Positions 7,554 through 64,000 of a stretch of 64,000 nucleotides of DNA are shown in pieces. Position 1 is the first letter of the stretch. Each line of letters opens with the position of its first letter. This DNA is from Actinophytocola xinjiangensis. Its GTDB lineage: Bacteria > Actinomycetota > Actinomycetes > Mycobacteriales > Pseudonocardiaceae. The position numbers and the translations under genes were made by a program. The stretch is from positions 1 through 64,000 of the forward strand of contig NZ_MSIF01000031.1 in assembly GCF_001921215.1 (NCBI RefSeq), read 5' to 3'. The notes beneath the pieces are model-generated. The model had not been told where the DNA came from, ran no database searches, and worked only from the letters and a program-made list of their open reading frames with translations.

Positions 7554-23995
<16,442 letters not shown>

Positions 23996-31794: not shown

Positions 31795-33084
31795 GTGCGC
31801 CCGCTCGATGACTGCGCCGAGATCACCTCGCGACTGTGTGCCGACCTCGCCGCCGAGTTCGGCACGCCGCTGTTCGCCTACGACGCGACCAGCCTGACCG
31901 GCGCACTGACCGAGCTGCGCACCGCGCTGCCGCCCGCCCTGGAGGTCTTCTACTCCCTCAAGGCCAACCCGAACCTCGGGGTGGTGGCGACACTGGCCGG
32001 GGCCGGGGCGCGGGCCGAGGTGTCCTCGCTGGTGGAGCTGCGGACCGCGCTGCTGGCCGGGGTGTCCCCGGCGGACGTGATCTTCCTGGGCCCCGGCAAG
32101 TCGGCCGAGGAACTGGCGGCCTGTCTGGACGCCGGCATCTACGCGGTGGTCGTCGAGTCGTTCGCCGAACTGGCCGACCTGAACCGGATGGCCGCCCACC
32201 GGGGCCGCCGCCAGCGGGTGCTGCTGCGGATCAACCCGGCGACGGCCGCGCGCGGCTCCCGGCTCACCATGGGCGGCAAGCCCCGCCAGTTCGGCATCGA
32301 CGAGCACGAGGTGCTGGCCGCCGGCGACCTGCCGGCCCGCCACCCGGCGCTGGACCTGGCCGGCGTGCACGCCTACCTGGGCACCCGGATCCTGGACGCC
32401 GCCGACGTGGTCGCCAACACCCGCCAGGTCCTGGACCTGGCGCGCCGGGTCGCCGCCGCCACCGGGATCGCCCTGGACGCGGTCGACGTCGGCGGCGGGC
32501 TGGGCGTGGCGTACTTCCCCGGCGAGCACGACCCGGACCTCGACGTGCTGCGCGCCGGCCTGGCCGACGCGATCGCGGAGTTCCGCCGCGACCACCCGGC
32601 GACCCGGCTGCTGCTGGAGTCCGGCCGCTACCTCACCGCCCGCGCCGGCCTGTACCTGGTGGGCGTGCGGTACGTGAAAACGTCGATGGGGCAACGGTTC
32701 GCGGTCACCGACGGCGGCACCCACCACCACATGGCGGCGGTCGGCATCGGCTCGTTCGTCAAGCGCTCGTTCCCCACCCAACTGGTCGGCCGGGACGCCA
32801 CCGGGCCGACCGGGCCGTGGCAGCTCACCGGTCCACTGTGTACCCCCAACGACACCGTCGCCAAGGACGCCGAGCTGCCGGAGCTGGCCAGGGGCGACCT
32901 GCTGGCGATCGGCCGCTCCGGCGCCTACGGCCCGACGGCCTCCCCCGGCCTGTTCCTCAGCCACGGCTTCCCCGCCGAGGTGCTCGTCCGCGACGGCGTC
33001 GCGCACCTGGTACGCGAACGCGACGCGCCCGAGGAACTCCTTGGCAAGCAACGACTTCCCACCCACCTTCAGGAGAGGATCTGA
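31795..33084 (+). CDS. BtrK-like fold-type III PLP decarboxylase
   Basis: A 429-residue member of the Orn/DAP/Arg decarboxylase family (alanine-racemase fold). The Schiff-base lysine is in FYSLKANPN (about residue 53). DVGGGLGVAYFPGE is the phosphate-binding loop, GRYLTARAG follows, and the C-terminal CTPNDTVAK holds the family's catalytic Cys. BtrK of butirosin and related enzymes decarboxylate an amino acid tethered to an ACP. The next gene is an ACP sharing one base with this stop (TGATG), which fits that mode. GTG 31795 has GGAG seven bases upstream. The substrate is unknown; a free amino-acid decarboxylase is the alternative. Confidence 0.88.
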   Translation: MRPLDDCAEITSRLCADLAAEFGTPLFAYDATSLTGALTELRTALPPALEVFYSLKANPNLGVVATLAGAGARAEVSSLVELRTALLAGVSPADVIFLGPGKSAEELAACLDAGIYAVVVESFAELADLNRMAAHRGRRQRVLLRINPATAARGSRLTMGGKPRQFGIDEHEVLAAGDLPARHPALDLAGVHAYLGTRILDAADVVANTRQVLDLARRVAAATGIALDAVDVGGGLGVAYFPGEHDPDLDVLRAGLADAIAEFRRDHPATRLLLESGRYLTARAGLYLVGVRYVKTSMGQRFAVTDGGTHHHMAAVGIGSFVKRSFPTQLVGRDATGPTGPWQLTGPLCTPNDTVAKDAELPELARGDLLAIGRSGAYGPTASPGLFLSHGFPAEVLVRDGVAHLVRERDAPEELLGKQRLPTHLQERI

Positions 33085-42353: not shown

Positions 42354-42654
42354 GAGATTTCACCTTCCCCGCCCCAGAACGCCCCGCAGTCAACCCCGGC
42401 GCGCTGACCTGCGGCATCAGGTGCGGGTACCCGACTTTGCGCCGGGGCGGCGAACCGGCGCGGGCCGGGCAGGGGGTGGCATGGGTGATTCACCCCCATA
42501 GAACGGTCGCGGGCCGACGCGGAACCGGGGGTGAACGGGCGGTTCCGGGCTGTGGCGGCGCGGGTGGCGCCACCGCCGGCACAGGGGCGAACGGCGTAAA
42601 TGGTGGTGATCGTTACCCATGCCAGCCCGCCGGCCGTGTGTGAGCATTCCTCGC
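42354..42654. promoter_or_regulatory. Divergent promoter region of SARP and lanM genes
   Basis: About 300 bases without a gene, holding the promoters of the SARP gene (left) and the lanthipeptide operon (right). A GGAACCG/CGGTTCC inverted repeat lies around 42520-42546. No clear heptamer direct repeat was identified by eye. Confidence 0.45.
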
Positions 42655-45556: not shown

Positions 45557-48460
45557 GTGGGAGTGCGCGCACCGGTCGTCGTCGGACGTGACCACGAGAT
45601 CGGGATCATCGAGCGGGCCCTCGGCGAGGTCGCCAAGGGCCGGGGCCAGGTCGTGCTGCTGACCGGCGAGGCCGGGATCGGCAAGTCCAGGCTGGCCGCG
45701 CACGCCACCGATCTGGCCTACGGCGCCGAGCTGAGCATCATGCGCGGCCGGGGCAGCGCCGTGGGCCGCACGGTCCCGTTCCGCGCGCTGAGCGAGGCGC
45801 TGCTGTCGCTGCAACGCCTCGGCACGCACGTGGACGTCGAGCAGTTGGGCGCCTACCGCCCCGAGCTGGCCAGGCTCAACCCCGACTGGGGCACGCCGTC
45901 CGAGGTCGCCGCCAGCGGTTCGCTGATGGTGCTCGCGGAGGGCGTGCTCCGGCTGACCGAGCTGGTCGGCCGGCACGCCGGCTGCGCGGTGGTGCTCGAC
46001 GACCTGCAGTACGTCGACCCGGACACGCTCGCGGTGCTGGAGTACGTCATCGACAACATCGAGCACCAGCCGACGTTGCTGCTGTGCACGATCCGCGACG
46101 ACGACGCGGACACCGTCGAGTTCGCCCGCACGGCGGGCCGGCGGTCTGCGGCCACCGTGGTCCCGCTGCGGCGGCTGACCCCCGGTGACGTCAGCGCGCT
46201 GGGCGCGGTGTGCCTGGGCGGCGCGGGCCAGTCGCTGCCCTCGGCGGCGACCGATCTGCTGTGGACGGGCAGCATGGGTCTGCCGTTCCTGGTGGAGGAA
46301 CTGCTCGACGAGATCGTCACCGAGGGCCGGCTGGTGCGCGACGAGGACGGCTGGCGGATGGTCGACTCGTTCCCGGATCCGCCCTCGGCGTTCGTGGAGG
46401 GCATCGACGCGCGGCTGGGGCGGCTCTCGGCGCAGGCGCGGGAGTTCGTGTCGGTGGCCGCGGTGCTGGGCCAGCGGTTCCCGCTGGTGATCGTCCAGGA
46501 GGTCACCGGGTTCGAGTACCGCACGCTGCTGCGCCACCTGCACGGCGACGTGGTGGCGAACATGGTCGCGCCGGACGACCACACCCCGGACTGGTACCTG
46601 TTCACCCACGCGCTGGTCGTGGACGCGGTGCTGGCGCTGCTCGCCGAGGAGACCAGGGTCGACCTGGCGCGGCGGGCGGCCGACGCGGTGGAGAAGCTCA
46701 ACAGCGACGTGCCGGGCGACTGGTGTCACCTGTGCGCGCGGCTGCGGGAGGCCGCCGGCCAGTTCACCGAGGCCGGCCAGCTCTACGCCAGGGCGGGGCG
46801 GCGGGCGCTGGCGCAGGGCGCCGCCCAGTCGGCGGTGACCCTGCTGGACCGGTCGCTGGACCTGCTGGTGCACGACCCGGCCAACCGGGCCTCGGCGCTG
46901 GAGAGCCAGCTGCTGGCGTTGACCGAGGCCGGTCAGGTGGACCGCGCGCTGGCGGTCGGCGCGCGGTTCGACGAGTTCGGCTCTGGCCTGGACCGGATCC
47001 ACCGGGTGCGTCTGCACACCCAGCTGGCGTGGGCGGCGAACCTGGCCGGGCGCACCGAGGGCGGCCTGGACCAGGTGCGGATCGCCCGCGCGCTGCTCGG
47101 CCCGGACCCCGACGACGAGCACGTCGCGCCGATCGACGTGGTGGCCGCGCACCTGGAGCTGGACCGGGCGACGCCAGGGCGGCTGGAGGTGGCCGAGGCG
47201 ATGGCGTTGCGCGCGGCGACCGTCGCCGAGCGGATCCCGCTGCCGATCATCGCGTGCCAGGCGTGGCAGTTGCTGGGGGCGCTGGCCCGCCGGCACGACC
47301 CGGCGCGGGCGACCGCGTACCTGGAGAAGAGCCGGGTCTTCGCGATCGCCCACGACCTGCCGATCTGGGAGATCCACGCCCTGGTGCGCCTGGGCCTGGA
47401 CGACGCGCTGCGCGCGGGCGACATCGACCGGCTGGAGCAGGCCCGCGAGCTGGCGTCGCGGATCGGCGCGGTGATCGCCCGCTACCAGTCCGAGGTCAAC
47501 ATCTCGTTGCAGCTGATCCTGCGGGGCGAGTTCACCGCCGCCAGGAACCTGATCGACAACGTCTCGGCGGCGGCGGCGCGCCTGGGGCTGCTGGAGATCC
47601 GCCAGTTCATGCTGGTCGCGCGGGCGGTGCTGGCCGGCCACCAGTGCGACCGGGCCGAGCTGGAGTCGGCCCAGCGGGAACTGGCCGGGCAGGGCGGCGA
47701 CCAGACCCAGTACGTGCCCCGGCTGCACGGCCTGGGGGCCGCGTTCTGCTCGCTGCTCCAGGAGGACCGCGAGCAGGCCAACGCCGACCTGGCGACCGCG
47801 CTGGCCACCGAGGAGGCCAACCCGACGACGTTCCACCTGTCCGGCCGGCACGGCCTGGCGTTGTTGTTGCGCGCGCTCGACGGCACCCTCGACTGGGCGG
47901 AGTACGTCGAGGTGAGCGCCAGCCCGGCGGCGGGAATGCGCTGGGACCGGCACTTCGCGCTGCTGGCGGCGGCGGTGCTCACCGGCCGGCGCGGCGACCC
48001 GGAGCAGGCGCTGGCGTGGCTGGAACGCGGTCAGGAGGCGGGGGAGCTGTACCCGGTGGCCCGCCATCTGGGTCTGCGGCTGGTGGGCGAGGCCGCCGCC
48101 CAGGACGGGTGGGGCGAGCCGGACCGGTGGCTGCGCACTGCCGAGCAGTACTTCCACGACGCGGGGATCCGTGCGGTGCCCGGGGCGTGCCGGGCGTTGC
48201 TGCGCCGGATGGGGGTGCGGGTCACCCAGCGCCGGTCGGGCACCAAGGACGTGCCGGACGACCTGCGCGCGGTGGGCGTCACCGGCCGGGAGTACGAGGT
48301 GTTGCTGCTGCTCGGGGCGCGCCTGGCCAACAACGAGATCGCCGTGCGGCTGCACCTGTCGCGGCGGACGGTGGAGAAGCACGTGTCCAGCCTGATGGCC
48401 AAGACCGGGGCCACCAACCGGGTCCAGCTGGGCAAGCTCACCGCCGGGGACGCTCGCTGA
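45557..48460 (+). CDS. LAL-type LuxR-family regulator with AAA ATPase domain
   Basis: A 967-residue large ATP-binding LuxR regulator. The N-terminal ATPase has Walker A GEAGIGKS (37-44) and Walker B CAVVLDDLQYVD. A long helical TPR-like middle follows, and the LuxR helix-turn-helix is at the C-terminus (NNEIAVRLHLSRRTVEKHVSSLM). Such proteins activate antibiotic clusters. It starts at GTG 45557, 17 bp after the precursor gene, so is probably in the same transcript and could give positive feedback. Confidence 0.92.
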   Translation: MGVRAPVVVGRDHEIGIIERALGEVAKGRGQVVLLTGEAGIGKSRLAAHATDLAYGAELSIMRGRGSAVGRTVPFRALSEALLSLQRLGTHVDVEQLGAYRPELARLNPDWGTPSEVAASGSLMVLAEGVLRLTELVGRHAGCAVVLDDLQYVDPDTLAVLEYVIDNIEHQPTLLLCTIRDDDADTVEFARTAGRRSAATVVPLRRLTPGDVSALGAVCLGGAGQSLPSAATDLLWTGSMGLPFLVEELLDEIVTEGRLVRDEDGWRMVDSFPDPPSAFVEGIDARLGRLSAQAREFVSVAAVLGQRFPLVIVQEVTGFEYRTLLRHLHGDVVANMVAPDDHTPDWYLFTHALVVDAVLALLAEETRVDLARRAADAVEKLNSDVPGDWCHLCARLREAAGQFTEAGQLYARAGRRALAQGAAQSAVTLLDRSLDLLVHDPANRASALESQLLALTEAGQVDRALAVGARFDEFGSGLDRIHRVRLHTQLAWAANLAGRTEGGLDQVRIARALLGPDPDDEHVAPIDVVAAHLELDRATPGRLEVAEAMALRAATVAERIPLPIIACQAWQLLGALARRHDPARATAYLEKSRVFAIAHDLPIWEIHALVRLGLDDALRAGDIDRLEQARELASRIGAVIARYQSEVNISLQLILRGEFTAARNLIDNVSAAAARLGLLEIRQFMLVARAVLAGHQCDRAELESAQRELAGQGGDQTQYVPRLHGLGAAFCSLLQEDREQANADLATALATEEANPTTFHLSGRHGLALLLRALDGTLDWAEYVEVSASPAAGMRWDRHFALLAAAVLTGRRGDPEQALAWLERGQEAGELYPVARHLGLRLVGEAAAQDGWGEPDRWLRTAEQYFHDAGIRAVPGACRALLRRMGVRVTQRRSGTKDVPDDLRAVGVTGREYEVLLLLGARLANNEIAVRLHLSRRTVEKHVSSLMAKTGATNRVQLGKLTAGDAR

Positions 48461-54034: not shown

Positions 54035-55318
54035 ATGGTCGCCGAATTAGTAGGCCCACCTCCGGGTGGGCTGGCCGAGCCGCCCAAGGTGGCGGAAAAG
54101 CCCCGCCGCCCCAGGGTTCCCGTGCTGGACGGGATCCGAGGTTGGATCGCGGTCGGTGTCGCTTTCGCGCACACCGCCTATTTCGCCGGAGTCATGGACG
54201 TCGGACCACTCAAGGGTGTTCCGGTCCTCAACTGGCTCACGGTCGGCCTCACCATCATCCTGACGCCGTTCTTCCTGCTTTCCGGCATGCTCCTGTACAA
54301 GGGGTTCGCGAAGGCGACGTTCACCGGCGGCTCGGCGCCGAACGTGAAAACGTTCCTGGTGCGCCGGCTGCTGCGGATCGTGCCCATGTACTGGGTCATG
54401 ATCGTGGCCTGTCTGCTGCTGCTGAACCTGTCGGCCATCGACGGTCTCTGGTACGTGATCTCGCCGCTGCTGGGCCTGCACTACTTCAAGAACACCGACT
54501 ACACCGGACTGATCCCCGGCCTGGAGATCACCTGGAGCGTGGTCACCGAGCTGATGTTCTACCTGCTGCTGCCGATCGCGGCGGCGCTGATCAACCGGTA
54601 CGCGCGCAAGGTCGCCGGCGACCCGAAGCGCCAGCTGCGCCGGATGCTGTGGTCGATGGCGCCGTTCGTGCTGCTGGGCCCGGCGTGGGAGATCTACACC
54701 CACCTGCCGTCGATGGGCCTCTACCCGATCGAGATCTTCTGGCCGCCGATGTTCCTCGGCGTGATGGCGATCGGCATGATGCTCGGCGCGCTCAACGCCT
54801 ACCAGGACGTGACCGGTGAGGTGCCCTGGCTGTACCGGGCGGCGGGGCGCTCGCCGCTGTCGTGGTGGGTCGCGGCCTTCGGGCTCTACATCCTCAACTG
54901 TGTGCGGCCCTTCGACAAGGCGGGCAGCGGTGACTACCCGCCGATGAGCCAGGCGCTGCTCGACCACGTGTCGACGGTGATCTGGGGTGTGCTGGTGCTG
55001 GTGCCGCTGGTCTCGCCGGTGGCCCGGTCGCGGTTGATGGACGCGGTGCTGGGCAACCGGGTCAGCGTGTTCCTCGGCCGGATCTCCTACGGCATCTACC
55101 TGTGGCACTTCCCGATGGTCTACCTCTGGCTGGGTGCGGGCAGCGTGTTCGGCACGGCCGCGATGGCGATGCCGGGGATGGCCAACGGGTGGCTGCTGGC
55201 CCAGGTGCTCGCCAGCTCGATCGTGATGGCCACGGTGAGCTTCTACGTGGTCGAGCGGCCGTTGGGCCGGCTCGGTGGCCGGTTGTTCCGGACGGGCACG
55301 CCGACGGCCGCCCTCTAG
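54035..55318 (+). CDS. Membrane acyltransferase (acyltransferase-3/OafA family)
   Basis: A 427-residue acyltransferase-3 protein with about ten membrane helices. The N-terminal RVPVLDGIRGWIAVGVAFAHT (about residue 25) holds the RxxxxxR and catalytic-His region, and the C-terminal SYGIYLWHFPMV is also typical. These enzymes O-acylate sugars, lipids or secondary metabolites at the membrane. Codon 5 is TTA (54047-54049), a possible bldA control point shared with the PKS gene, and the two have similar upstream elements. The enzyme may therefore acylate the aromatic product or a glycosylated form of it. No sugar genes are in the window. Confidence 0.88.
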   Translation: MVAELVGPPPGGLAEPPKVAEKPRRPRVPVLDGIRGWIAVGVAFAHTAYFAGVMDVGPLKGVPVLNWLTVGLTIILTPFFLLSGMLLYKGFAKATFTGGSAPNVKTFLVRRLLRIVPMYWVMIVACLLLLNLSAIDGLWYVISPLLGLHYFKNTDYTGLIPGLEITWSVVTELMFYLLLPIAAALINRYARKVAGDPKRQLRRMLWSMAPFVLLGPAWEIYTHLPSMGLYPIEIFWPPMFLGVMAIGMMLGALNAYQDVTGEVPWLYRAAGRSPLSWWVAAFGLYILNCVRPFDKAGSGDYPPMSQALLDHVSTVIWGVLVLVPLVSPVARSRLMDAVLGNRVSVFLGRISYGIYLWHFPMVYLWLGAGSVFGTAAMAMPGMANGWLLAQVLASSIVMATVSFYVVERPLGRLGGRLFRTGTPTAAL

Positions 55319-55348
55319 ATCCGACCCCGCCTCCACCGGGGTCTGGCG

Positions 55349-55394
55349 CTCCCGGCACAGTTTTTGAGAGTATCCTCAAAAACTGTGCCGGGAG
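55349..55394. promoter_or_regulatory. 20-bp perfect inverted repeat, probable TetR operator or RBS hairpin
   Basis: Arms 55349-55368 and 55375-55394 (CTCCCGGCACAGTTTTTGAG and its complement) are perfect over 20 bp around AGTATC. The right arm contains the GGGAG ribosome-binding site of the thioesterase, ending seven bases before its ATG, so an RNA hairpin would hide the site. The A/T-rich centre TTTTTGAGAGTATCCTCAAAAA looks like a TetR-type operator. It also lies 30 bases after the acyltransferase stop and could end that transcript. Confidence 0.8.
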
Positions 55395-55401
55395 ATCATC
55401 C

Positions 55402-55836
55402 ATGACCGAGTTCCACCCCACCCTGGAGCTGGCCAACTCCGTGTTGGCGGCGCAACCGTTCACCGGGCAGGTCGGCGCCCGCTGCACGGTGTTCGACCGG
55501 GGCGCCGCCACGCTGGAGATCGACATCCGCGACCAGCACCGCCAGCAGTACGGCGTGGTGCACGGCGGCGTGCTGGCCTACGCGGCCGACAACGTGCTCA
55601 CCTTCGCCGGCGGCAGCGTGCTGGGCCCCAGCGTGATCACCGCCGGGTTCACCATCAACTACCTGCGCGCCGCCCGCGACGGGGTGCTGCGCGCCGAGGG
55701 TGTCGTGGTGCACGCCAACGCGCGTCAGGCGGTCTGCACGGCGCAGATCCGGGTCATCCCGCCCGACGGCGGCGAGCCGACACTGTGCGCGGTGGCCCAG
55801 GGCACGATCGTCGCCACCGGCGTCAGCCAGCCATGA
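55402..55836 (+). CDS. PaaI-family hotdog thioesterase
   Basis: A 144-residue hotdog-fold thioesterase. The PaaI signature is HGGVLAYAADNV (about residue 54), with Asp in the active-site position, followed by TAGFTINYLRAA and GVVVHANARQAVCTAQI. Members hydrolyse aryl- or acyl-CoA and occasionally ACP thioesters. Its 3' end overlaps the convergent TetR gene by 14 bp. The palindrome covering its ribosome-binding site suggests TetR control. It could edit or release the polyketide product. Confidence 0.9.
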   Translation: MTEFHPTLELANSVLAAQPFTGQVGARCTVFDRGAATLEIDIRDQHRQQYGVVHGGVLAYAADNVLTFAGGSVLGPSVITAGFTINYLRAARDGVLRAEGVVVHANARQAVCTAQIRVIPPDGGEPTLCAVAQGTIVATGVSQP

Positions 55837-56419
55837 TCAGCGCGGCGATCCGCCGGGTCAACCCGGTCGCCGAAGGCGCGGGCGGCTCCCCGCGGCCCAG
55901 GTAGCGGCCGACCACCGAGATCGGCAGGTCGATCAGCGCCAGCAGGATCTCCTCGGCGCCCCGGCCGGTCTCCGCGCGCAACGCGCGCACCACGCGCGCC
56001 AGCTCCCGCTCCCGCGCGGCGGCGTTGTCCGCCAGGCTGGCCCTGGCCGCCTCCGGCCAGGTGTGCGGCGAGAACGCCCGCACCCCGGCGTGCAGCACGG
56101 CCGCCCGCTCCGCGTTGTCCCGGCACCAGTCGACCGTCCACCCGCTCGCGTGCACCACGCCGTCCGCGCCGGGGTGCGCGTCGAGCACCGCCACCAGCTC
56201 CCGGTGGAACCGCCGCTCGGTGCCCAGCCAGACCTCGGCGAGCAGCCCCGGGCGGCCGGCGAAGCGGTGGTAGACCGACCCGGTCCGCGCCCCGACCGCC
56301 TCGGCCACGGCGGTCACCGTGACCGCGCGGGCGCCACCGGCGGCGAAGCACCGCACCGCCGCGTCGACGAACTCGTCGACGGAGTGTTCCGGGGGACGGC
56401 CCATCACACGGCCCCACAC
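55823..56419 (-). CDS. TetR-family transcriptional regulator
   Basis: A 198-residue TetR repressor with its DNA-binding domain in the first ~60 residues (VDEFVDAAVRCFAAGGARAVTVTAVAEAVGARTGSVYHRF, shown here in outline: helix, turn, then TGSVYHRFAGRPGLL). The C-terminal ligand domain is generic. It is encoded 13 bp after the amidohydrolase on the same strand, so is probably co-transcribed with it. The 20-bp palindrome before the thioesterase gene is its most likely operator. Confidence 0.92.
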   Translation of the reverse strand: MWGRVMGRPPEHSVDEFVDAAVRCFAAGGARAVTVTAVAEAVGARTGSVYHRFAGRPGLLAEVWLGTERRFHRELVAVLDAHPGADGVVHASGWTVDWCRDNAERAAVLHAGVRAFSPHTWPEAARASLADNAAARERELARVVRALRAETGRGAEEILLALIDLPISVVGRYLGRGEPPAPSATGLTRRIAALIMAG

Positions 56420-56432
56420 CGGCGCGCAGCCG

Positions 56433-57383
56433 TCATACCCGCAGCGTAGCGGGCAGCAGCCGGTGCGCGTTGGCGGTGGTGAGCGCCCGCCAGGTGGTGC
56501 CGGCCGGCTGGGCGGCGGTGTCCAGGGCGCCCGCGTGGGCCAGCGCCGCCGGTACCGGCGTCCAGCAGTAGTCGCTGCCGTAGAGGATCCGGGAGTCGCC
56601 GAACGCGCCGGTCAGCGCGGGCGCCGCGGTCGGGAACGGTGTCCCGGCCAGGTCGTACCAGAGCCCGGCGAGCTGCTCGGCGACCGGCGTGGCCGGCGGT
56701 GTCCCCAGGAACACGTCGGCGAACAGCTGGACCCGGTCGGCCAGCACCGGGAGCGCGCCGCCGCTGTGGGTGAAGATCCACTCGATGCGCGGGTAGCGGG
56801 CCAGCACGCCGCCCAGCACGAGGTCGGCGGCCGCACGGGTGGACTCGAAGACGAACTCCACCATCGGGCACGGCCGCCCGCTGGCCACCGCCGCCGCGTT
56901 CGGCGGCGCCGTGGGGTGGACGAACACGGTGGCAGCACGGCGATCCAGCTCCGCGTACACCTCGGCGTAGCGCCCGTCGCCCGGGTACACGCCGTGCGCG
57001 TTGGTCAGGATCGCGACGCCGGCGCTGCCCAGCACGTCCAGCGCGTGGGTCAGCTCGGCCAGCGACCCGGCGACGTCCGGGAAGGGCAGCGACGCGAAGT
57101 GCGCGAACCGTTCGGGGCGCGCGGCGGCCACCCCGGCCCCGTACTCGTTCACCGCGCGCGCGAGCGCGCGGGCGGCACCGTCGTCGCCGAAGTGGACGCC
57201 GGGCGAGGACACCGACAACACGGAGGTGGCGATGCCCGCGGTGTCCATCAGGGACAGATGGTCCGCCAGGCTCCACACCGCCCAGCCGGGCATCCCGTCC
57301 GGACGGACGTGTCCGGCCGCGACGGCGGCGGCGACGTAGTCGTCGGTGAGGAAGTGGGCGTGTACGTCGATCAGGCCGGTCAT
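56433..57383 (-). CDS. ACMSD-type amidohydrolase (probable aromatic decarboxylase)
   Basis: A 316-residue amidohydrolase-2 protein. Metal ligands read IDVHAHF (residues 5-11), FVHPTAP (about residue 165), the His in FTHSGGALP (about residue 220) and Asp in YGSDYCW (about residue 274), the set seen in ACMS and gamma-resorcylate decarboxylases. Fungal 6-methylsalicylate decarboxylases (PatG, YanB) belong to this family. It is divergent from an orsellinate-synthase-like PKS, so decarboxylation of orsellinic acid to orcinol is the natural guess. ATG 57383 is chosen since AGGA is nine bases upstream; ATG 57392 is in frame. Confidence 0.86.
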   Translation of the reverse strand: MTGLIDVHAHFLTDDYVAAAVAAGHVRPDGMPGWAVWSLADHLSLMDTAGIATSVLSVSSPGVHFGDDGAARALARAVNEYGAGVAAARPERFAHFASLPFPDVAGSLAELTHALDVLGSAGVAILTNAHGVYPGDGRYAEVYAELDRRAATVFVHPTAPPNAAAVASGRPCPMVEFVFESTRAAADLVLGGVLARYPRIEWIFTHSGGALPVLADRVQLFADVFLGTPPATPVAEQLAGLWYDLAGTPFPTAAPALTGAFGDSRILYGSDYCWTPVPAALAHAGALDTAAQPAGTTWRALTTANAHRLLPATLRV

Positions 57384-57531
57384 ACCCGGCATCCTGGCGG
57401 CACCGGCGCCGGCCCGCCCACTTCGGCACTGCGCAACCTGGGAGACACCGCGCATTCGCGGAGATGCGGCCGGGGTGCGGATCGCGAAACCTGTGACGAA
57501 TCGATGCCGCCGAGTCCACGGGAGAGCACGC
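57384..57531. promoter_or_regulatory. Divergent promoter region of amidohydrolase and PKS
   Basis: 148 bases between divergent starts. It holds ACTGCGCAA (57428) and TGACGAATCGATG (57494), both also found at similar distances before the acyltransferase gene at 54035. GGGAGAG (57520-57526) is the PKS ribosome-binding site. Confidence 0.55.
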
Positions 57532-60500
57532 ATGGCGCCAGATGGCAACTTAGTCCCGCCGGTACCCATCGCGATCGTCGGCATGGGTTGCCGGTTCCCA
57601 GGAGGGGTCCAGTCCCCGTCGGCGCTGTGGAACGTGTTGGTGGACAACCAGGACGTGATCGGCTCGGTGCCACCGCAGCGCTGGGCCGACTACGCCGCGC
57701 GCGGCCCCGACTTCGCCGGCGCGGTCCGCCGGGCGATCGGCGCCGGCGGCTACCTGGAGGACATCGCCGGGTTCGACGCGGACGTGTTCGGCATCTCCCC
57801 GCGCGAGGCCGAGCTGATGGACCCGCAGCAGCGGGTCACGCTGGAGGTGGCGTGGGAGTCGCTGGAGCACGCGGGAATCGCGCCGAGCGCGCTGGCCGGC
57901 AGCGACACCGCCGTGTTCATGGGCGTGTGCACCGACGACTACGGCCGCCGCGTGCTGGAGGACCTGCCGCGGCTGGAGGCGTGGAGCGGCATCGGCGCGT
58001 CGATGTGCGCGGTGGCCAACCGGGTCTCGCACGCGTTGGACCTGCGCGGCCCCAGTGTCGTGGTGGACACCGCCTGCTCGGCGTCGCTGGTCGCCGTGCA
58101 CCAGGCGTGCCAGAGCCTGCGGGCCGGGGAGACGTCGGTGGCGTTGGCCGGCGGCGTGATGCTGGTCGCCAGCCCCGCCTACGCGCTGGCGCTGGACGCG
58201 GCCGGCGCGCTGTCCCCCGACGGCACGTCCAAGGCGTTCGACGCGGCCGCCAACGGCTACGTGCGCAGCGAGGGCTGCGCGGTGCTGACCCTCAAACGGC
58301 TCGACGACGCGCTGCGCGACGGCGACCGGGTGCACGCCGTGCTGCGCGGCAGCGCCGTGTGCCAGGACGGCCGCACGAACGGGATCATGGCGCCCAGCGG
58401 GGCCGCGCAGGCCAGGCTGGTCGGGCTGGCGTGCGCGAACGCCGGCGTGGCACCGGGTTCGGTGGACTACGTCGAGGCGCACGGCACCGGCACCGGGGTG
58501 GGTGACCCGATCGAGGTGTCCGCGCTGGCGGCGACCGTCGGGCAGGACCGCCTGGACGGGCAGCCGTGCCTGATCGGCTCGGTCAAGACCAACATCGGGC
58601 ACCTGGAGGCCGCGTCCGGCGTGGCCGGGATCATCAAGGTGGTGCTGGCGCTGGGGCACGAACAGCTGCCGGCGACGCTGGCCCGCGACGGCCTCAACCC
58701 CGCCATCCCGTGGGCGGAGTCGGGGCTCGCGGTGGTCACCGAGAACACCGCGTGGCCCCGGCGCGCCGACCGGCCCCGGCGCGCGGGCGTGGGGAACTAC
58801 GGCTACGGCGGCACCCTGGCCCACGTCGTGGTGGAGGAGGCGCCGGCCCCCGCCGGTGACCGCACCCCCGACGGCACCGGTCCCCGACTGTTCCCGCTGT
58901 CCGGGACGACCACCGAGGCGTTGCGCGCCAACGCCTCCCGGCTCGCCGCGTGGCTGTCCGACGCGGCCGCCCCACTGGACGCGGTCGGCGCGACACTGGC
59001 GTTCGGGCGGGCCGGGCTGGACGTGCGGGCGTGCGTGGTGGCCGCCGACCGGGACGAGTTGGCCGAACGGCTCGGGTCGGTGGCGCGGGGCCGGGGTGGC
59101 GCGGGGATCGTCACCGGCCAGGTGCTGCGCGGCGCGGTGTCGCCCCACCCGGTGTGGGTGTTCTCCGGGCACGGCGCGCAGTGGGCCGGGATGGGCGCCG
59201 ACCTGCTGGCGACCGAGCCGGTGCTCGGCGAGACCCTCGACGAGCTGGCGGAGATCTTCGCCAAGGAGCTGGGTTTCACGCCCCGCCAGGCCCTGGCGGA
59301 CGGCGAACTCGGGGACGTGGGACAGATCCAGGCGCTGATCTTCGCGCTCCAGGTCGGGCTGTCCCGGGTGTGGCGGGCGCACGGGGTGACCCCGGCGGCG
59401 ATCATCGGGCACTCGGTCGGTGAGGTCGCCGCCGCGGTGGCCGCCGGCATGCTGGACCTGCCCGACGCGGCCCGGCTGATCTGCCGGCGCTCGGCGCTGC
59501 TGCGACGGGTTGCCGGGCGCGGTGGCATGGTGCTGGTGAACCTGCCCTTCGCCGAGGTCGACCGGCGGGTGCGCGGCGCGGCCGGCGCCGCGATCGCCGC
59601 CGCCCCACGGTCCACAGTGGTCAGCGGGGACGTGGCGGTGGTCGAGGACCTCGCGCGGCGGTGGCGGGCCGAGGGTCTGACGGTGCGCCGCGTCGACTCG
59701 GACGTCGCCTTCCACAGCCCCCACATGGACGAACTGGTCGGGGACCTGCGCACCGCGCTCGACGGCCTCACCGCACGCCCGGCGCGGGTCCCGGTGTACT
59801 CGACCGCCCTGGCCGACCCCCGCTCGGCCGCGCCCCGCGACGCCGCCTACTGGGCGACGAACCTGCGCGCGCCAGTGCGCTTCGCCGACGCCGTCGCCGC
59901 CGCCGTGGCGGACGGGCACCGGCTGTTCGTCGAGGTGTCGGCGCACCCGGTGGTGGCCCACTCGGTGATGGAGACCCTGGCGGAGGTGGGCGTGGACGGT
60001 GTCGTCGTGCCGACGCTGCGGCGCGGCCAGGGCGACCGGGAGACACTGCTCGATCGTCTGGGGACGCTGCACTGCCTTGGTGTGCCGGTGGATCTGGGGC
60101 ACCGGGCACACGAGCGGGCCGAACTGCCCGCCACGGCCTGGCAGCACCGGCGCTACTGGGTCAGCTCCCGCCCCACGTCCGCCGGCGGCGGCCACGACGT
60201 CGAGGGACACACGGTGCTGGGCCGGCACGTGGCCGTGCAGGGCGCCTCGCCGGTGTCGCTGTGGCAGACCAGGGTGGACACCGCCAGCCGCCCCTACCCC
60301 GGCGGGCACCAGGTACTGGGCAGCGAGGTGCTGCCGGCGGCGGTGGTGCTCACGACGTTCCTGGCCGCCGGCGGCGACGCGCTCACCGACGTGGTGCTGC
60401 GCTCCCCCGTCGCGGTGACCCTGCCGCGCGAGGTCCAGGTCGTGCTCCAGGACGGCGAACTGCGCCTGAGCTCACGGCTGGCCGACCAGCCGAGCGACCA

Positions 60501-61308
60501 CTCGTGGCTGGTCAACTCCTCGGCCAGGGTGGCGCCGCCCGGCGCCCGTCCCGCGCCGCTCACGCCGCTGCTGGCCGAGGTCCTCGACCCCGGCTGTGTC
60601 CTGGAGCGGCTTACCGACATCGGGGTCGTCGGCATCGGTTTCCCCTGGCGCGTCACCGAGGTCCACCGCGCCGCCGAGCACCTGCGCGCCAGGATCGCCG
60701 CCGACCCCGACGACGCGATGCCGGTCACCACCTGGGGTTCGCTGTTCGACGCCGCCCTGTCGGCCGCGCCGGTCCTGTTCCCCGGCGAGCCGCGGCTGCG
60801 CATGCCGGGCGCGCTGCGCGAGGTCCGGGTGTACGGCGCCCCGCCGGCCGAGGCGCTGGCCGGCATCGACCTGCGCGCGGTCACCGCCGCCGGGGACGCC
60901 GAGGTCGACGTGACGATCGCCGGCCCGGACGGGGAGGTCCTGGCCAGCCTCACCGGTGTGCGGTTCGCCGTGGTCCACCACGCCAGGACCCCCGCCACGA
61001 CCGAACCGTCCACAGCGGACCTGTCGTGGCGCGCGCTGCCACCGTCCGAACTGGCCGCGCACGTGGAAACCCTGGTCCGCCAGGCCATCGCCGTCGAGCT
61101 GCGCACCGACCCGGACGCGCTCAACCCCTACCGTCCGCTCACCGAGCTGGGTGTGGACTCCCTGCTGGGCGAGTCGATCCGCCAGCGGCTGGTGCGCGGG
61201 GTCGGCACGCCGCTGCCCAGCGGCCTGCTGTGGGACCGGCCCAACGTGGCCTCCCTGCGTGACCACCTGACCAGCCTGGTGACCGACGACCAGAACCGCG
61301 CCGCCTGA
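57532..61308 (+). CDS. Iterative type I PKS, orsellinic acid synthase-like (KS-AT-DH-ACP)
   Basis: A 1258-residue PKS. KS (about 12-435): DTACSASL Cys ~182, EAHGTGTGVGDP and NIGHLEAASG histidines. AT (540-850): IIGHSVGEV Ser ~625, with VAFHSPHMDE in the malonyl-specificity region. DH/TH-like (890-1150): intact HQVLGSEVLP (HxxxGxxxxP) at ~925. ACP: LGVDSLLGES Ser ~1208. There is no KR, ER or TE. This size and order match bacterial orsellinic acid synthases (AviM, CalO5) rather than 6-methylsalicylate synthases, which have a KR. The product is probably orsellinate from four C2 units, released by the TH-like domain or a separate thioesterase. Codon 7 is TTA (57550-57552), suggesting bldA-type control. 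ATG 57532 has GGGAGAG six bases upstream. Confidence 0.9.
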   Translation: MAPDGNLVPPVPIAIVGMGCRFPGGVQSPSALWNVLVDNQDVIGSVPPQRWADYAARGPDFAGAVRRAIGAGGYLEDIAGFDADVFGISPREAELMDPQQRVTLEVAWESLEHAGIAPSALAGSDTAVFMGVCTDDYGRRVLEDLPRLEAWSGIGASMCAVANRVSHALDLRGPSVVVDTACSASLVAVHQACQSLRAGETSVALAGGVMLVASPAYALALDAAGALSPDGTSKAFDAAANGYVRSEGCAVLTLKRLDDALRDGDRVHAVLRGSAVCQDGRTNGIMAPSGAAQARLVGLACANAGVAPGSVDYVEAHGTGTGVGDPIEVSALAATVGQDRLDGQPCLIGSVKTNIGHLEAASGVAGIIKVVLALGHEQLPATLARDGLNPAIPWAESGLAVVTENTAWPRRADRPRRAGVGNYGYGGTLAHVVVEEAPAPAGDRTPDGTGPRLFPLSGTTTEALRANASRLAAWLSDAAAPLDAVGATLAFGRAGLDVRACVVAADRDELAERLGSVARGRGGAGIVTGQVLRGAVSPHPVWVFSGHGAQWAGMGADLLATEPVLGETLDELAEIFAKELGFTPRQALADGELGDVGQIQALIFALQVGLSRVWRAHGVTPAAIIGHSVGEVAAAVAAGMLDLPDAARLICRRSALLRRVAGRGGMVLVNLPFAEVDRRVRGAAGAAIAAAPRSTVVSGDVAVVEDLARRWRAEGLTVRRVDSDVAFHSPHMDELVGDLRTALDGLTARPARVPVYSTALADPRSAAPRDAAYWATNLRAPVRFADAVAAAVADGHRLFVEVSAHPVVAHSVMETLAEVGVDGVVVPTLRRGQGDRETLLDRLGTLHCLGVPVDLGHRAHERAELPATAWQHRRYWVSSRPTSAGGGHDVEGHTVLGRHVAVQGASPVSLWQTRVDTASRPYPGGHQVLGSEVLPAAVVLTTFLAAGGDALTDVVLRSPVAVTLPREVQVVLQDGELRLSSRLADQPSDHSWLVNSSARVAPPGARPAPLTPLLAEVLDPGCVLERLTDIGVVGIGFPWRVTEVHRAAEHLRARIAADPDDAMPVTTWGSLFDAALSAAPVLFPGEPRLRMPGALREVRVYGAPPAEALAGIDLRAVTAAGDAEVDVTIAGPDGEVLASLTGVRFAVVHHARTPATTEPSTADLSWRALPPSELAAHVETLVRQAIAVELRTDPDALNPYRPLTELGVDSLLGESIRQRLVRGVGTPLPSGLLWDRPNVASLRDHLTSLVTDDQNRAA

Positions 61309-61311
61309 GAA

Positions 61312-61356
61312 AGCCCCGGGCGTGTCCTCCAGTTTCTGGAGGACACGCCCGGGGCT
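61312..61356. terminator. Strong bidirectional terminator
   Basis: A 21-bp perfect stem (AGCCCCGGGCGTGTCCTCCAG and its complement) with a TTT loop lies four bases after the PKS stop and 13 bases before the convergent gene's stop. It should end both transcripts. Confidence 0.92.
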
Positions 61357-61369
61357 CGCGGCCGGACGG

Positions 61370-62266
61370 TCAGGACACGCCCGGTGACACCACGCTCGTG
61401 ATCCACCGGGCCGCGCCCTGCCCCGGGGTGAACCGGGACCGCTGCGTCTTCCCCGACCACACCGTCTCCGGGCGGCACTGCAGCAGGACCGGAACCCCGT
61501 CCTCCACCGCGAACTCGACGTCCTGGGGGCCGCCGAGACGGCGTTCCAGACGCTTGCCCAGCCGCGCCAGGTCGAGGACCTGGTCGTCGGTCAGGCAGGG
61601 CGCGACGCGGCGGGCGGGGTCGACGACCGCCGGCGTGCCGTCCTCGCGGTACTCCAGGCGTTTGTCGCCGGGGTCGTGGTCCAGGACCGACAGGGCGATC
61701 TTGTCCACCACCCAGCGTTCGGGGGTCACCTCGCCGCCGACGACCGTCAGGCCAAGACCCCAGCTGGCCTCGACCACGATCCGCGAGCGGTCGCCGGTGA
61801 CCGGGCTGATGGTGAACATCACGCCGGCCGTGGTGGCCCGCACCATGCGCTGCACGACCACGCCCATCGACAGCGTGGCCGGGTTGATGCCGTTGACCCG
61901 CGCGTAGTCCACCGCCCGCTCACCGGACACGCCGGCCCAGCACCGGCGCACGGCCTCGACGACCTGGTCGGCGCCCCGGACGCCGACCACGGTGTCGAAG
62001 CCGCCGGCGAAGCTGGTGGCCGCGGAGTCCTCGGCGGTGGCGCTGGAGCGCACGGCGACCGGGACGTCGCTGTGCGGGCTGAGCCGGTGGTAGGCCTCGC
62101 GGACGGCGTCGTCGACACCGATCCGCCGCCGCGCGCGGGCGTCGACGGCGAACCCGTTGGCCACCGGCATTCCCTCGGCCGCCAGCCGCGCGAGCCCCGC
62201 GGCCTTGCCACCGAAGCGCCGCACGTCCAGACAGACCGGGTCGTCGAGCCGGGCGGTGAAGCTCAT
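61370..62266 (-). CDS. PEP-synthase-like ATP-binding subunit (PPDK_N)
   Basis: A 298-residue protein equal to the N-terminal ATP-grasp half of PEP synthase/PPDK. Visible are FGGKAAGLARLAAEGMPVANGF at the start (outline: GGKAxxLxxL...VPxGF), AVRSSATAEDSAATSFAG (about residue 72), VVQRMVRATTAGVMFT and the C-terminal DVEFAVEDGVPVLLQCRPET. In phenylphosphate synthase of Thauera, PpsB is the same detached ATP-binding part; in rifampin phosphotransferase it is fused. Its ATG overlaps the stop of the next gene's product (ATGA), so both halves are co-translated. Likely role: phosphorylating a phenol or alcohol made by the neighbouring PKS. Confidence 0.87.
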   Translation of the reverse strand: MSFTARLDDPVCLDVRRFGGKAAGLARLAAEGMPVANGFAVDARARRRIGVDDAVREAYHRLSPHSDVPVAVRSSATAEDSAATSFAGGFDTVVGVRGADQVVEAVRRCWAGVSGERAVDYARVNGINPATLSMGVVVQRMVRATTAGVMFTISPVTGDRSRIVVEASWGLGLTVVGGEVTPERWVVDKIALSVLDHDPGDKRLEYREDGTPAVVDPARRVAPCLTDDQVLDLARLGKRLERRLGGPQDVEFAVEDGVPVLLQCRPETVWSGKTQRSRFTPGQGAARWITSVVSPGVS

Positions 62267-64000
62267 GCCGCCACCCCCGTCCCCACGTCCGAGAGCAGCA
62301 CGACCTCGCCGGTCGTGCCGTCCAGGCGCACCCGGTCCCCGGTGCGCAGCCGCACCGTGGCGAACCCGGTCCCGACCACCGCCGGCAGCCCGTACTCGCG
62401 GCACACGATCGCCGCGTGGCACATCATGCCGCCGATGTCGGTGATCACCCCGGCCACCACCGAGAACGCCGGGCCCCACGAGGGCGCCGAGATCGGGCAC
62501 ACCAGCACCTCGCCGGGCAGCAGCGACCCCAGCTCGTGCTCGGAGCGCAGCACCCGCACGGTGCCCTCGACGATCCCCGGCGACCCGCCGACCCCGGCCA
62601 GGCGGTCGCCGCCGCCGGACTCCTGGCCCAGCCACTGTTCGACCCGCTCGGTGGTCACCCCGAAGTTCATCACGGCGAACGGGTCGGTGATCCGCTCCGG
62701 CGGGGTGCCGTAGGCCGGGCGCGGGGTGGCCGCGCGCAGCGCCGCCACGATCCCCCGGCGCCGCTCGATCTCGGCCGCCCAGCGCCGCACGCCGCGCTGG
62801 GGCACACCGATCGCCCACGACTGGACGACGTCAGCCAGCACCTCCTCCAGCTCGAACCGGTTGAGGTGGAACACGTCGTCGCGCGCACGGGCGAACCCGG
62901 CGTCGACCAGGAAGTCGCCCAGCTGCCACATCTTCTGCCAGAACACCGCGTGTGCCCAGTGCTCGACGTAGATGTTGTGCTCCTCGATGTAGGGGAACAC
63001 CCGCCGCGCGAGCGCCAGCAGCTCGTCGAACTGCGCGGTCTCCGCGTCGGTGAGCAGCGAGCGGTACTCGGCGACGATCTCGTCGCGTTCGGCGCGCAGC
63101 CGTGCCACCGGCCGGGCGATCTCCTCCCCCGCGCGCAGCCGGACCGCGTAGCGGGCGATGCCGGTCAGCGGGATGGCCGGGTTGCCCAGCCAGGTGTCCT
63201 GGTCGTGGGTGAACCCGTACTCGGCGAAGTAGTTGAACCACGGGTCCTTGGCCCGTTCGTAGGCCATCAGCCAGCGCCGCCCGGCCTCGCTGCCCAGCAG
63301 CGCCCCGAACGTCGCGTCCGGGTCGTCACCGGCGATGAGGTGGTCGACGTCCAGCTCGCAGGCCAGCGCGGCCAGCGAGCGCAGCTCGTCGTCGGGGCGG
63401 AAGGCGATCACGTCGATGCCGGCGACCATCCGGGCGATGGTCTGTTCGGCGATCTCCGGGAACGCCTCACGGCAGAACTCGAAGAACACGATGTAGCCGC
63501 CGTAGCCGAGGTTGAGGAACTCGAAGTGGTGCTGCCACACCACGAACAGGTCGTCGACCAGCCGGCGGAACCCGGCGATCGCCTCCCACGCGGTGGACCG
63601 GCCGCGCGCCTCGGTGACCACCTCGATCGGCTCCAGCTCACGCAGCGGCGGGAAGGTCACCGCGCGCATGTCGGCCACCACGGCGGCGACCTTGGTCTTC
63701 CACCGCCCGTACAGCTCGTCCCAGTTGTCGTAGTAGTAGCCGGCGCGGGCCTGGAAGTGCTCGGCGCGGCGGGCGATCTCGGCCGGGTCGGTGACCGGGA
63801 CCGGCGCGATGTACACGTAGCCCTGGTGGACGCGGATGTCCTGGCCGAGCGAGGCCGGCAGCGCGAAGATCCGGGTGCTGTTCTGCCCGGCGCCCAGGTA
63901 GGCGGCCTCGGCGATGACGCTGTCCAGCGGGTGGCAGCCGCGCGACCAGTGCATGGTGTCGGCGAACCAGAGCCGTGCGCCCTCCTCGTCGCGGGTCTCC
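62263..64000 (-). CDS. PEP-synthase-like phosphohistidine subunit (partial, runs off the right edge)
   Basis: At least 579 residues, with the open frame continuing past 64000. The C-terminal ~90 residues are the swivelling PEP-utiliser domain: ISAPSWGPAFSVVAGVITDIGG, then MMCHAAIVCREYGLPAVVGTG with the phosphocarrier His. The long preceding region starts with MHWSRGCHPLD and is an alpha-helical substrate-binding part as in PpsA of phenylphosphate synthase or the rifampin-binding domain of RPH. It lacks an ATP-grasp domain, which the next gene provides. An internal ATG at 63954 exists, but upstream codons (RLWFADT) are in frame and family-like, so the true start lies outside. Confidence 0.85.
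   Translation of the reverse strand, partial: ETRDEEGARLWFADTMHWSRGCHPLDSVIAEAAYLGAGQNSTRIFALPASLGQDIRVHQGYVYIAPVPVTDPAEIARRAEHFQARAGYYYDNWDELYGRWKTKVAAVVADMRAVTFPPLRELEPIEVVTEARGRSTAWEAIAGFRRLVDDLFVVWQHHFEFLNLGYGGYIVFFEFCREAFPEIAEQTIARMVAGIDVIAFRPDDELRSLAALACELDVDHLIAGDDPDATFGALLGSEAGRRWLMAYERAKDPWFNYFAEYGFTHDQDTWLGNPAIPLTGIARYAVRLRAGEEIARPVARLRAERDEIVAEYRSLLTDAETAQFDELLALARRVFPYIEEHNIYVEHWAHAVFWQKMWQLGDFLVDAGFARARDDVFHLNRFELEEVLADVVQSWAIGVPQRGVRRWAAEIERRRGIVAALRAATPRPAYGTPPERITDPFAVMNFGVTTERVEQWLGQESGGGDRLAGVGGSPGIVEGTVRVLRSEHELGSLLPGEVLVCPISAPSWGPAFSVVAGVITDIGGMMCHAAIVCREYGLPAVVGTGFATVRLRTGDRVRLDGTTGEVVLLSDVGTGVAA

What the first reader, a model, noticed from the sequence alone, without database searches (positions are those of the whole stretch)
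54035..64000. Candidate orsellinate to orcinol to aryl-phosphate pathway
Seen: a KR-less KS-AT-DH-ACP iterative PKS, divergent from an ACMSD-type amidohydrolase, and convergent with a two-subunit PEP-synthase-like system split exactly into ATP-grasp and phosphohistidine proteins. Known: PatG/YanB-type decarboxylases act on 6-methylsalicylate; phenylphosphate synthase PpsAB has this same split and phosphorylates phenol. Inference: the cluster makes and phosphorylates a small phenol, possibly for later carboxylation, acylation or as a protected intermediate. I know of no described polyketide route with this step.
Basis: partly seen in the sequence, partly recalled or inferred. Interest (0 to 1): 0.8.

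Follow-up and report, generated by a model that had tools for sequence, protein, structure and literature searches.

The report
Phenol kinase inside a polyketide cluster
An actinobacterium appears to carry, inside a gene cluster that builds a small natural product, a two-protein phenol-phosphorylating enzyme of a sort known from pathways that break phenols down, close to a polyketide synthase and a decarboxylase that could make the phenol; what is made is not yet known.

Summary
A KR-less KS-AT-PT/DH-ACP synthase (57532-61308 +), a divergent ACMSD-type decarboxylase AmH (56433-57383 -) and a convergent split dikinase (I 61370-62266 -, H 62263-64101 -) are present. One same-genus genome has this run, AmH and a split PKS, in another order; two genomes of another family have the run without H/I, AmH or PKS at the locus. 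H groups (100/100) with kinases beside biotin-carboxylase/HAD modules resembling the acetovanillone (Hpe) pathway; its genome has no close homologue of that carboxylase or phosphatase, so 'later carboxylation' is unlikely. Orsellinate is plausible, not shown: the PT is less AviM-like than two control enzymes. Substrate and fate of the aryl phosphate are inference. Verdict: a two-component phenol dikinase apparently recruited into a biosynthetic cluster; new variant of a known kind.

The parts
54035..55318 (+). Acyltransferase family 3 membrane protein (membership in the cluster uncertain)
   Evidence: Pfam PF01757, E 2.3e-23; no hit on G043 contigs C20 (E<=1e-6) or C7 (E<=1e-8)
55402..55836 (+). 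Hotdog thioesterase, PaaI-like (membership uncertain)
   Evidence: PF03061 6e-10; TIGR00369 6.2e-13; start; no hit on G043 C20 or C7
55823..56419 (-). TetR-family regulator, 13 bp downstream of the decarboxylase gene on the same strand (membership uncertain)
   Evidence: PF00440 1.3e-10; no hit on G043 C20 or C7
56433..57383 (-). Amidohydrolase_2 protein (AmH), ACMSD / gamma-resorcylate / 5-carboxyvanillate decarboxylase superfamily
   Evidence: PF04909 1.1e-18; best solved relative 2f6k (called metal-dependent hydrolase), then 5-carboxyvanillate and gamma-resorcylate decarboxylases; metal-site signatures; 68% identical homologue on G043 C20
57532..61308 (+). Iterative-type polyketide synthase KS-AT-PT/DH-ACP, no KR
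   Evidence: active-site motifs; PT/DH region matches AviM PT 7VWK at 2e-33; same-genus relatives L067 and L062 carry KR
61370..62266 (-). I: ATP-grasp subunit of a two-component dikinase (HpeI/CreI/PpsB-like), shortened N-lobe
   Evidence: PF01326 1.3e-70; best solved relative 9GOJ = HpeI; alignments
62263..64000 (-). H: substrate-binding and phosphohistidine swivel subunit (HpeH/CreH/PpsA-like); gene begins beyond the window at 64101
   Evidence: PF00391 4.1e-23; NCBIfam NF006153 (PRK08296.1-5) 784.8 bits; tree and motif

Best explanation
This is the left part of an uncharacterised biosynthetic cluster in an Actinophytocola-type actinobacterium. The PKS most likely makes an unreduced aromatic acid (orsellinate favoured) and AmH decarboxylates it to a phenol (orcinol if so). 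The two-component dikinase then phosphorylates the phenolic OH by the mechanism described for phenolic dikinases: I binds ATP, the histidine of H takes the phosphate, the swivel domain passes it to the phenol, giving the aryl phosphate. The aryl phosphate is then used, as a protected or activated building block, by the AfsA / KSIII-ACP-KSII / UbiA / fused-dikinase machinery encoded in the same gene run. Shown by sequence: gene content, order, domains, active-site signatures, kinship of H, co-variation of H/I with PKS and AmH in four genomes. Inferred: that the run is one operon, every chemical step, the identity of the phenol, and the fate of the phosphate.
For: H and its G043 counterpart lie in a 24-row clade (100/100) with 22 rows from 21 catabolic-type loci, apart from 28 other homologues. 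In 21 of 21 of those loci (L018, which supplied the queries, included) a carboxyltransferase and a HAD-phosphatase homologue lie beside H (domains confirmed by Pfam in L018 only); this is the part list of the Hpe pathway, whose kinase was shown to phosphorylate 4-hydroxyacetophenone and acetovanillone (PMC9618137, PMC12167813). TDIGGMMCH fits the T/SXXGGXXXH of phenolic dikinases, with Met at the regulatory Thr site and Cys before His as in HpeH. H/I, AmH and PKS pieces are linked with the gene run in both same-genus genomes although gene order differs, and the run occurs without all three at the locus in G407 and G881. AmH belongs to a superfamily rich in aromatic decarboxylases. The PKS lacks KR and its nearest solved DH-type relative is a product-template domain.
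Against: H/I is coupled to the 13-gene run, not to the PKS. Only two genomes, one genus, show the linkage, so it may be one evolutionary event. In G043 the PKS lies in two pieces on two contig edges, with a frame break and insertion-sequence-like DNA (by eye), so it may be broken there. I is 298 aa against about 345 in most relatives, lacking about 44 residues of the N-lobe; activity is not assured, although residues invariant in 18 sequences remain. HpeH itself was not in the tree; the branch with the gene order reported for strain GD02 (L120, L121) is another one, so the substrate of H's own branch is inferred from gene content alone. The PT is not the closest type to AviM. The HAD protein also occurs in the runs without H/I, so no dedicated aryl-phosphate phosphatase was found.
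Confidence: 0.45

Rival explanations
1. H/I phosphorylates an intermediate of the gene run's own pathway (for example the AfsA/KS product or another hydroxy compound), and the PKS and decarboxylase make a separate building block joined later.
For: H/I closes a tight 13-gene same-strand run with several 4-bp gene overlaps, while the PKS is only convergent; the run has a second, fused dikinase, so phosphoryl chemistry is part of its logic.
Against: The run exists in G407 and G881 without H/I, so the core chemistry does not need it, and among the four runs H/I is present only in the two that also have PKS and AmH; H's nearest relatives sit in phenol-type modules.
Confidence: 0.25
2. H/I is a self-protection or storage kinase: it phosphorylates the phenolic end product, as RPH does to rifampicin, and a phosphatase activates it later.
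For: RPH is the fused homologue, and a similar mechanism is proposed for it (PMC12167813); the run has a HAD-type phosphatase candidate.
Against: The HAD is 80-85% conserved in runs that lack H/I, so it has another primary role; H is closest to small-phenol modules, and phmmer finds RPH only in the swivel domain.
Confidence: 0.15
3. H/I is a catabolic phenol-scavenging kinase that merely landed beside the cluster.
For: Its nearest relatives are in catabolic-looking modules.
Against: Only distant homologues of the Hpe-type carboxyltransferase (27% in G000 and G043, against 76% in control G386) and of HpeD (30-36% in G000, 30% in G043, against 57%) at E<=1e-10; H/I is at the end of the gene run in both genomes.
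Confidence: 0.08

Closest known systems
HpeHI, two-component phenolic dikinase of the acetovanillone/4-hydroxyacetophenone pathway (PMC9618137, PMC12167813; PDB 9GOJ)
   Same: Split into ATP-grasp (I) and swivel/substrate (H) proteins; phosphohistidine motif with Cys before His; I's best solved relative is HpeI.
   Different: No close carboxylase or HpeD homologue in the genome; I shortened; sits in a biosynthetic-type gene run. H's nearest clade has the order carrier, biotin carboxylase, carboxyltransferase, HAD, H, I; the GD02 order with H and I first is seen in L120 and L121, another branch.
CreHI (4-cresol, Corynebacterium) and PpsAB (phenol, Thauera)
   Same: Two-component dikinases described with the same mechanism (PMC12167813).
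   Different: Reported to have Ser, not Cys, before the His; their sequences were not compared here.
AviM / CalO5 bacterial orsellinic acid synthases (PMC9135731, passages read)
   Same: KS-AT-PT-ACP without KR; our His aligns with the 7VWK His that, by its spacing to I956, is AviM H949, and an Asp fits D1104 by motif.
   Different: PT match to 7VWK is 2e-33, against 3e-70 for KR-less L068 and 1e-46 for KR-bearing L067; in a 9-row tree the query, L068 and the KR-labelled group form an unresolved three-way split.
ACMSD / gamma-resorcylate / 5-carboxyvanillate decarboxylases (and, recalled, PatG/YanB, OrsB)
   Same: Sequence superfamily and metal-site signatures.
   Different: Substrate untested; best solved relative 2f6k is named only 'metal-dependent hydrolase'; a 57-58% homologue in G881 lies in a 20-kb stretch without a PKS hit.
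AfsA-type butenolide/gamma-butyrolactone gene runs with a fused dikinase and a UbiA homologue (L140, L141)
   Same: AfsA, PEP-synthase-like dikinase and UbiA homologues (29-33% identity) within about 10 kb; L140 also an ACP, a male-sterility-type reductase and an NDK-like protein. That salinipostin (spt) operons look like this is my recollection, not verified.
   Different: Ours has KSIII/KSII, HAD, HIT-like, U400, DUF6182 and H/I; L140 has an AMP-ligase, reductase and nitroreductase instead. The L140 UbiA-like protein had no Pfam hit.

Membership tests
Two-component phenolic dikinases (PpsAB/CreHI/HpeHI) | ATP-grasp and swivel/substrate domains on two adjacent proteins | tested here: met
   PPDK_N only in I, PEP-utilizers mobile domain only in H, genes overlap by 4 bp
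Two-component phenolic dikinases (PpsAB/CreHI/HpeHI) | T/SXXGGXXXH phosphohistidine motif with Met in place of the regulatory Thr | tested here: met
   TDIGGMMCH against the motif given in PMC12167813
Two-component phenolic dikinases (PpsAB/CreHI/HpeHI) | H full-length related to H proteins of phenol-type modules rather than to PEP synthase | tested here: met
   62-84% over most of its length to L009-L030 (L028 cut by its contig); solved PEP synthases and RPH match only the swivel domain by phmmer
Two-component phenolic dikinases (PpsAB/CreHI/HpeHI) | Complete ATP-grasp N-lobe in I | tested here: inconclusive
   about 44 residues missing, invariant residues kept; structure prediction never ran
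Two-component phenolic dikinases (PpsAB/CreHI/HpeHI) | Phosphorylates a phenol with ATP | not testable with these tools
   needs an enzyme assay
Hpe pathway | Three-part biotin carboxylase and HpeD phosphatase with the kinase | tested here: not met
   carboxyltransferase 27% and HpeD 30-36% hits only in G000; control G386 76% and 57%
Bacterial orsellinic acid synthase (AviM type) | KS-AT-PT-ACP, no KR | tested here: met
   KR found by the same kind of scan in L067 and L062
Bacterial orsellinic acid synthase (AviM type) | PT domain of the AviM subclade | tested here: inconclusive
   7VWK is the best solved relative, but KR-bearing L067 scores better and the tree is unresolved
Amidohydrolase-2 aromatic decarboxylase | HxH plus later His and Asp metal/catalytic signatures | tested here: met
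   alignments; role of residues recalled
Amidohydrolase-2 aromatic decarboxylase | Decarboxylates orsellinate or 6-methylsalicylate | not testable with these tools
   needs an enzyme assay

The most novel reading that the evidence does not exclude
The aryl phosphate made by H/I is not a protecting group but a building block: orcinyl (or similar) phosphate is joined through its phosphate to the AfsA/KS-derived butenolide-type product with the help of UbiA and the fused dikinase, giving an aryl phosphodiester or phosphotriester natural product, so that a catabolic phenol dikinase was recruited to build a P-O-aryl bond in a signalling-type or antibiotic molecule.
Probability: 0.13. Interest if true: 0.85.

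Novelty: new variant of a known kind. Interest (0 to 1): 0.6.

Why it matters
The two-component phenolic dikinases named in PMC12167813 act in breakdown of cresol, phenol and hydroxyacetophenones; its authors write that recognising the family should help find members in other processes and that it is unclear why these pathways start with phosphorylation. A member wired into a PKS/AfsA cluster, without close homologues of the carboxylase and phosphatase of its relatives, makes a biosynthetic use of phenol phosphorylation directly testable with two purified proteins and a handful of phenols, and points to a possible product class with unusual phosphorus chemistry.

Tried and rejected
Rejected: (a) that the PKS is unrelated to the gene run. 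On L009 alone, which holds only part of the contig, no PKS was seen in the 9 kb downstream of I; the full contig C20 then showed AmH and the PKS start upstream. (b) That the run's HAD is the HpeD-like partner of H/I: different best Pfam families, no hit of it in L010-L030 at E<=1e-3, and conserved in runs without H/I. (c) That AmH always travels with a PKS: in G881 the 57-58% homologue has no PKS hit in the 20-kb stretch read. (d) That the AviM match settles the product: both controls scored better. (e) Plasmids: no match to the HIT-like protein.

Led nowhere: literature on phenol dikinases in natural-product clusters (listings only: 36 papers of which 20 listed, 0 papers, 192 papers of which 10 listed, PMC12167813 first); salinipostin papers (listings only, none opened); orsellinate decarboxylase papers (one listing, not opened); structure prediction of I (not completed); promoter and terminator scan of 57300-61500 (0 and 0).

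Rows dropped: in the H tree L031 and L032 (copies of the query and L009) were left out, and L033 repeats L010; the 28 'other' rows are L034-L060 from the 30 best-scoring loci (45 of 390 genomes matched) plus L108. Flanks were read for 12 of those 28 rows. In the PKS tree the partial G043 piece was left out, and the KR label of L063 and L064 rests on identity only (Pfam was run on L067, L062 and L068). Of 11 U400-bearing genomes besides G000 and G043 were read around the gene and G648 was not. Locus maps kept the best hit per place at 45 bits or more, 50 bits or 60 bits.
Full report
WHAT IS THERE. With starts chosen by eye and located the order is: acyltransferase-3 54035-55318 (+), hotdog thioesterase 55402-55836 (+), TetR 55823-56419 (-), amidohydrolase AmH 56433-57383 (-), PKS 57532-61308 (+), ATP-grasp protein I 61370-62266 (-), phosphohistidine protein H 62263-64101 (-). 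The window is G000 contig C25, bases 1-64000, of an 89854-base contig, so contig and window coordinates agree.

Reading on past 64000, H and I are the last genes of a minus-strand run: PEPS fused dikinase 72475-75150, UbiA 71579-72478 (Pfam 33.5 bits, just under its cut-off of 34.2), a P-loop kinase-like protein 70962-71582 and a HIT-like protein 69451-70308 (no Pfam hit for either; both names are my reading by eye), DUF6182 70327-70965, an unknown protein U400 68324-69526 (conserved from about 69454), AfsA 67358-68314, KSIII 66309-67361, ACP 66073-66312 (short frame, named by eye), KSII 64859-66073, HAD 64131-64838, H, I. Several neighbours overlap by 4 bp (coordinates). That it is one operon is inference from this spacing. 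Upstream and divergent lie an aldo-keto-reductase-like gene (75362-76390; by eye, no family scan) and a SnoaL/O-methyltransferase fusion.

CONSERVATION OF THE WHOLE. The closest genome with the run is G043. Its contig C20 contains L009 letter for letter, which names it as Actinophytocola sp. MAG Dino_bin25; G000 is in the same genus group. C20 has the run at 60-84% identity, AmH (68%), the reductase-like gene (72%), a SnoaL-type gene, a methyltransferase-like gene, and at the contig edge the first part of a PKS (79% over residues 1-309 of ours, then 59% in another frame), all on the other side of the run compared with PKS and AmH in G000. A further piece (residues 510-1254, 64%) is at the edge of contig C7; both edges carry DNA that by eye looks like an insertion sequence, so the G043 PKS may be interrupted. 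Acyltransferase, thioesterase and TetR homologues were not hit on C20 or C7. Searching U400 in 386 family genomes (8 with a match, G000 and G043 included) and 394 class genomes (6, G000 included), and the HIT-like protein in 392 genomes of G407's genus (2), gave two more complete runs, G407 and G881, unnamed members of one genus in another family. Neither has an H, I, AmH or PKS hit in the 52 kb (G407) or 55 kb (G881) read at the locus. In the whole genomes, G881 has a 45% H homologue about 1.2 Mb away and AmH homologues of 58% and 38% elsewhere; G407 has none at E<=1e-40 and 1e-30. Hence H/I, AmH and PKS are together in two genomes and absent from the locus in two. The two positives are one genus, so this is suggestive, not statistical.

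WHAT KIND OF KINASE. A two-component 'phenolic dikinase' family (PpsAB, CreHI, HpeHI) is described in PMC12167813 (abstract, sections 8-10 and passages read). Our pair shows the split, the T/SXXGGXXXH motif (TDIGGMMCH), Met at the regulatory Thr position and the Cys before His of HpeH. I's best solved relative is 9GOJ, which is HpeI. In a 52-row tree H and L009 sit in a 24-row clade (100/100) with 22 rows from 21 other actinobacterial loci, apart from 28 further homologues. In those 21 loci (L010-L030), a carboxyltransferase and a HAD-phosphatase homologue adjoin H in 21 of 21, and biotin carboxylase and carrier in 20 of 21 (L020 lacks them); L018 supplied the queries (Pfam check in L018 only). 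Of 12 flanks read from the 28 other rows, 2 (L120, L121) have such a module, in the H-I-first order reported for strain GD02 (PMC9618137: abstract, sections 7, 8 and passages). HpeH's own sequence was not at hand, so it is not in the tree, and it may belong to that second branch. My reading is that H comes from a branch that phosphorylates hydroxyphenyl ketones or similar phenols before carboxylation. G000 and G043 have only distant homologues of the carboxyltransferase (27%, against 76% in control G386) and of HpeD (30-36% in G000, 30% in G043, against 57%) at E<=1e-10. The kinase appears to have been taken out of that context. No PKS was hit (E<=1e-6) in any of 33 other H flanks read, L010-L030 and L114-L125. 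I is short by about 44 residues in the N-lobe (L009 is intermediate), with the invariant residues kept.

WHAT THE PKS MAKES. Motifs for KS, a malonyl-type AT (VAFH), PT/DH and ACP are intact (meaning of motifs recalled). Same-genus relatives L067 and L062 have a KR; L068 does not. The best solved relative of our PT/DH is 7VWK, the AviM product-template domain (PMC9135731, passages only). Our His aligns with the 7VWK His that has an Ile seven residues on, as H949 and I956 in the paper; the Asp that fits D1104 is matched by motif only. The controls cut against a simple reading: KR-bearing L067 scores 1e-46 and KR-less L068 3e-70 against 2e-33 for ours, region by region ours is closer to the KR-labelled group than to L068 in KS, AT and PT, and in a 9-row tree ours, L068 and the KR-labelled group form an unresolved split inside a 100/100 clade. 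Orsellinate remains the simplest guess for an unreduced tetraketide, but another aromatic is possible. AmH is in the ACMSD/gamma-resorcylate/carboxyvanillate decarboxylase superfamily, so decarboxylation of an aromatic acid is a fair inference.

WHAT THE GENE RUN MIGHT DO. AfsA with PEP-synthase-like dikinase and UbiA homologues (29-33% identity) recurs in L140 and L141, and the dikinase-UbiA pair without an AfsA hit in L137-L139. L140 adds an ACP, a male-sterility-type reductase, an NDK-like protein and a nitroreductase. From memory, salinipostin-type phosphotriester operons look like this; the library searches listed no paper that I checked it with, so it is only a lead. Nine other loci with U400 (for example G744) lack most of the run.

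VERDICT. The inference 'PKS -> phenol -> aryl phosphate' is partly supported: kinase type and co-variation agree with it; substrate, product and order of steps are unproven, and 'later carboxylation' is unlikely. I found no paper describing such a kinase in a biosynthetic cluster in the searches made (open-licence papers, listings only apart from the three papers named).

Noticed in passing
window 7554-31398 (-): Nonribosomal peptide synthetase genes: a 1617-aa protein with two adenylation, one condensation and two carrier stretches and a 438-aa condensation protein by Pfam, beside a 5481-aa frame too long to scan whole.
   Followed up: partly
window 42619-45297 (+): 892-aa protein with DUF4135 and a LanC-like domain, as in class II lanthipeptide synthetases (recalled); no precursor peptide was looked for.
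   Followed up: no
window 31795-33084 (+): Pyridoxal-dependent ornithine/arginine/diaminopimelate-type decarboxylase beside the NRPS genes.
   Followed up: no
window 45557-48460 (+): 967-aa LuxR-type regulator with an AAA ATPase domain, with a 1298-aa frame on the opposite strand that is probably only a high-GC shadow frame.
   Followed up: no
L099 (G744) 11563-16692; also L092 and L098: U400, DUF6182 and the P-loop kinase-like protein recur together without the rest of the gene run; in G744 a 567-aa protein that looks GH3-like by eye lies between kinase and U400.
   Followed up: partly
L137, L138, L139: A fused PEP-synthase-like dikinase and a UbiA homologue lie side by side without an AfsA hit in the 20 kb read; function unknown.
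   Followed up: no
L114 and L115: Two H-like (one of them only 26% identical) and two I-like stretches within one 20-kb stretch: paralogous kinase genes close together.
   Followed up: no
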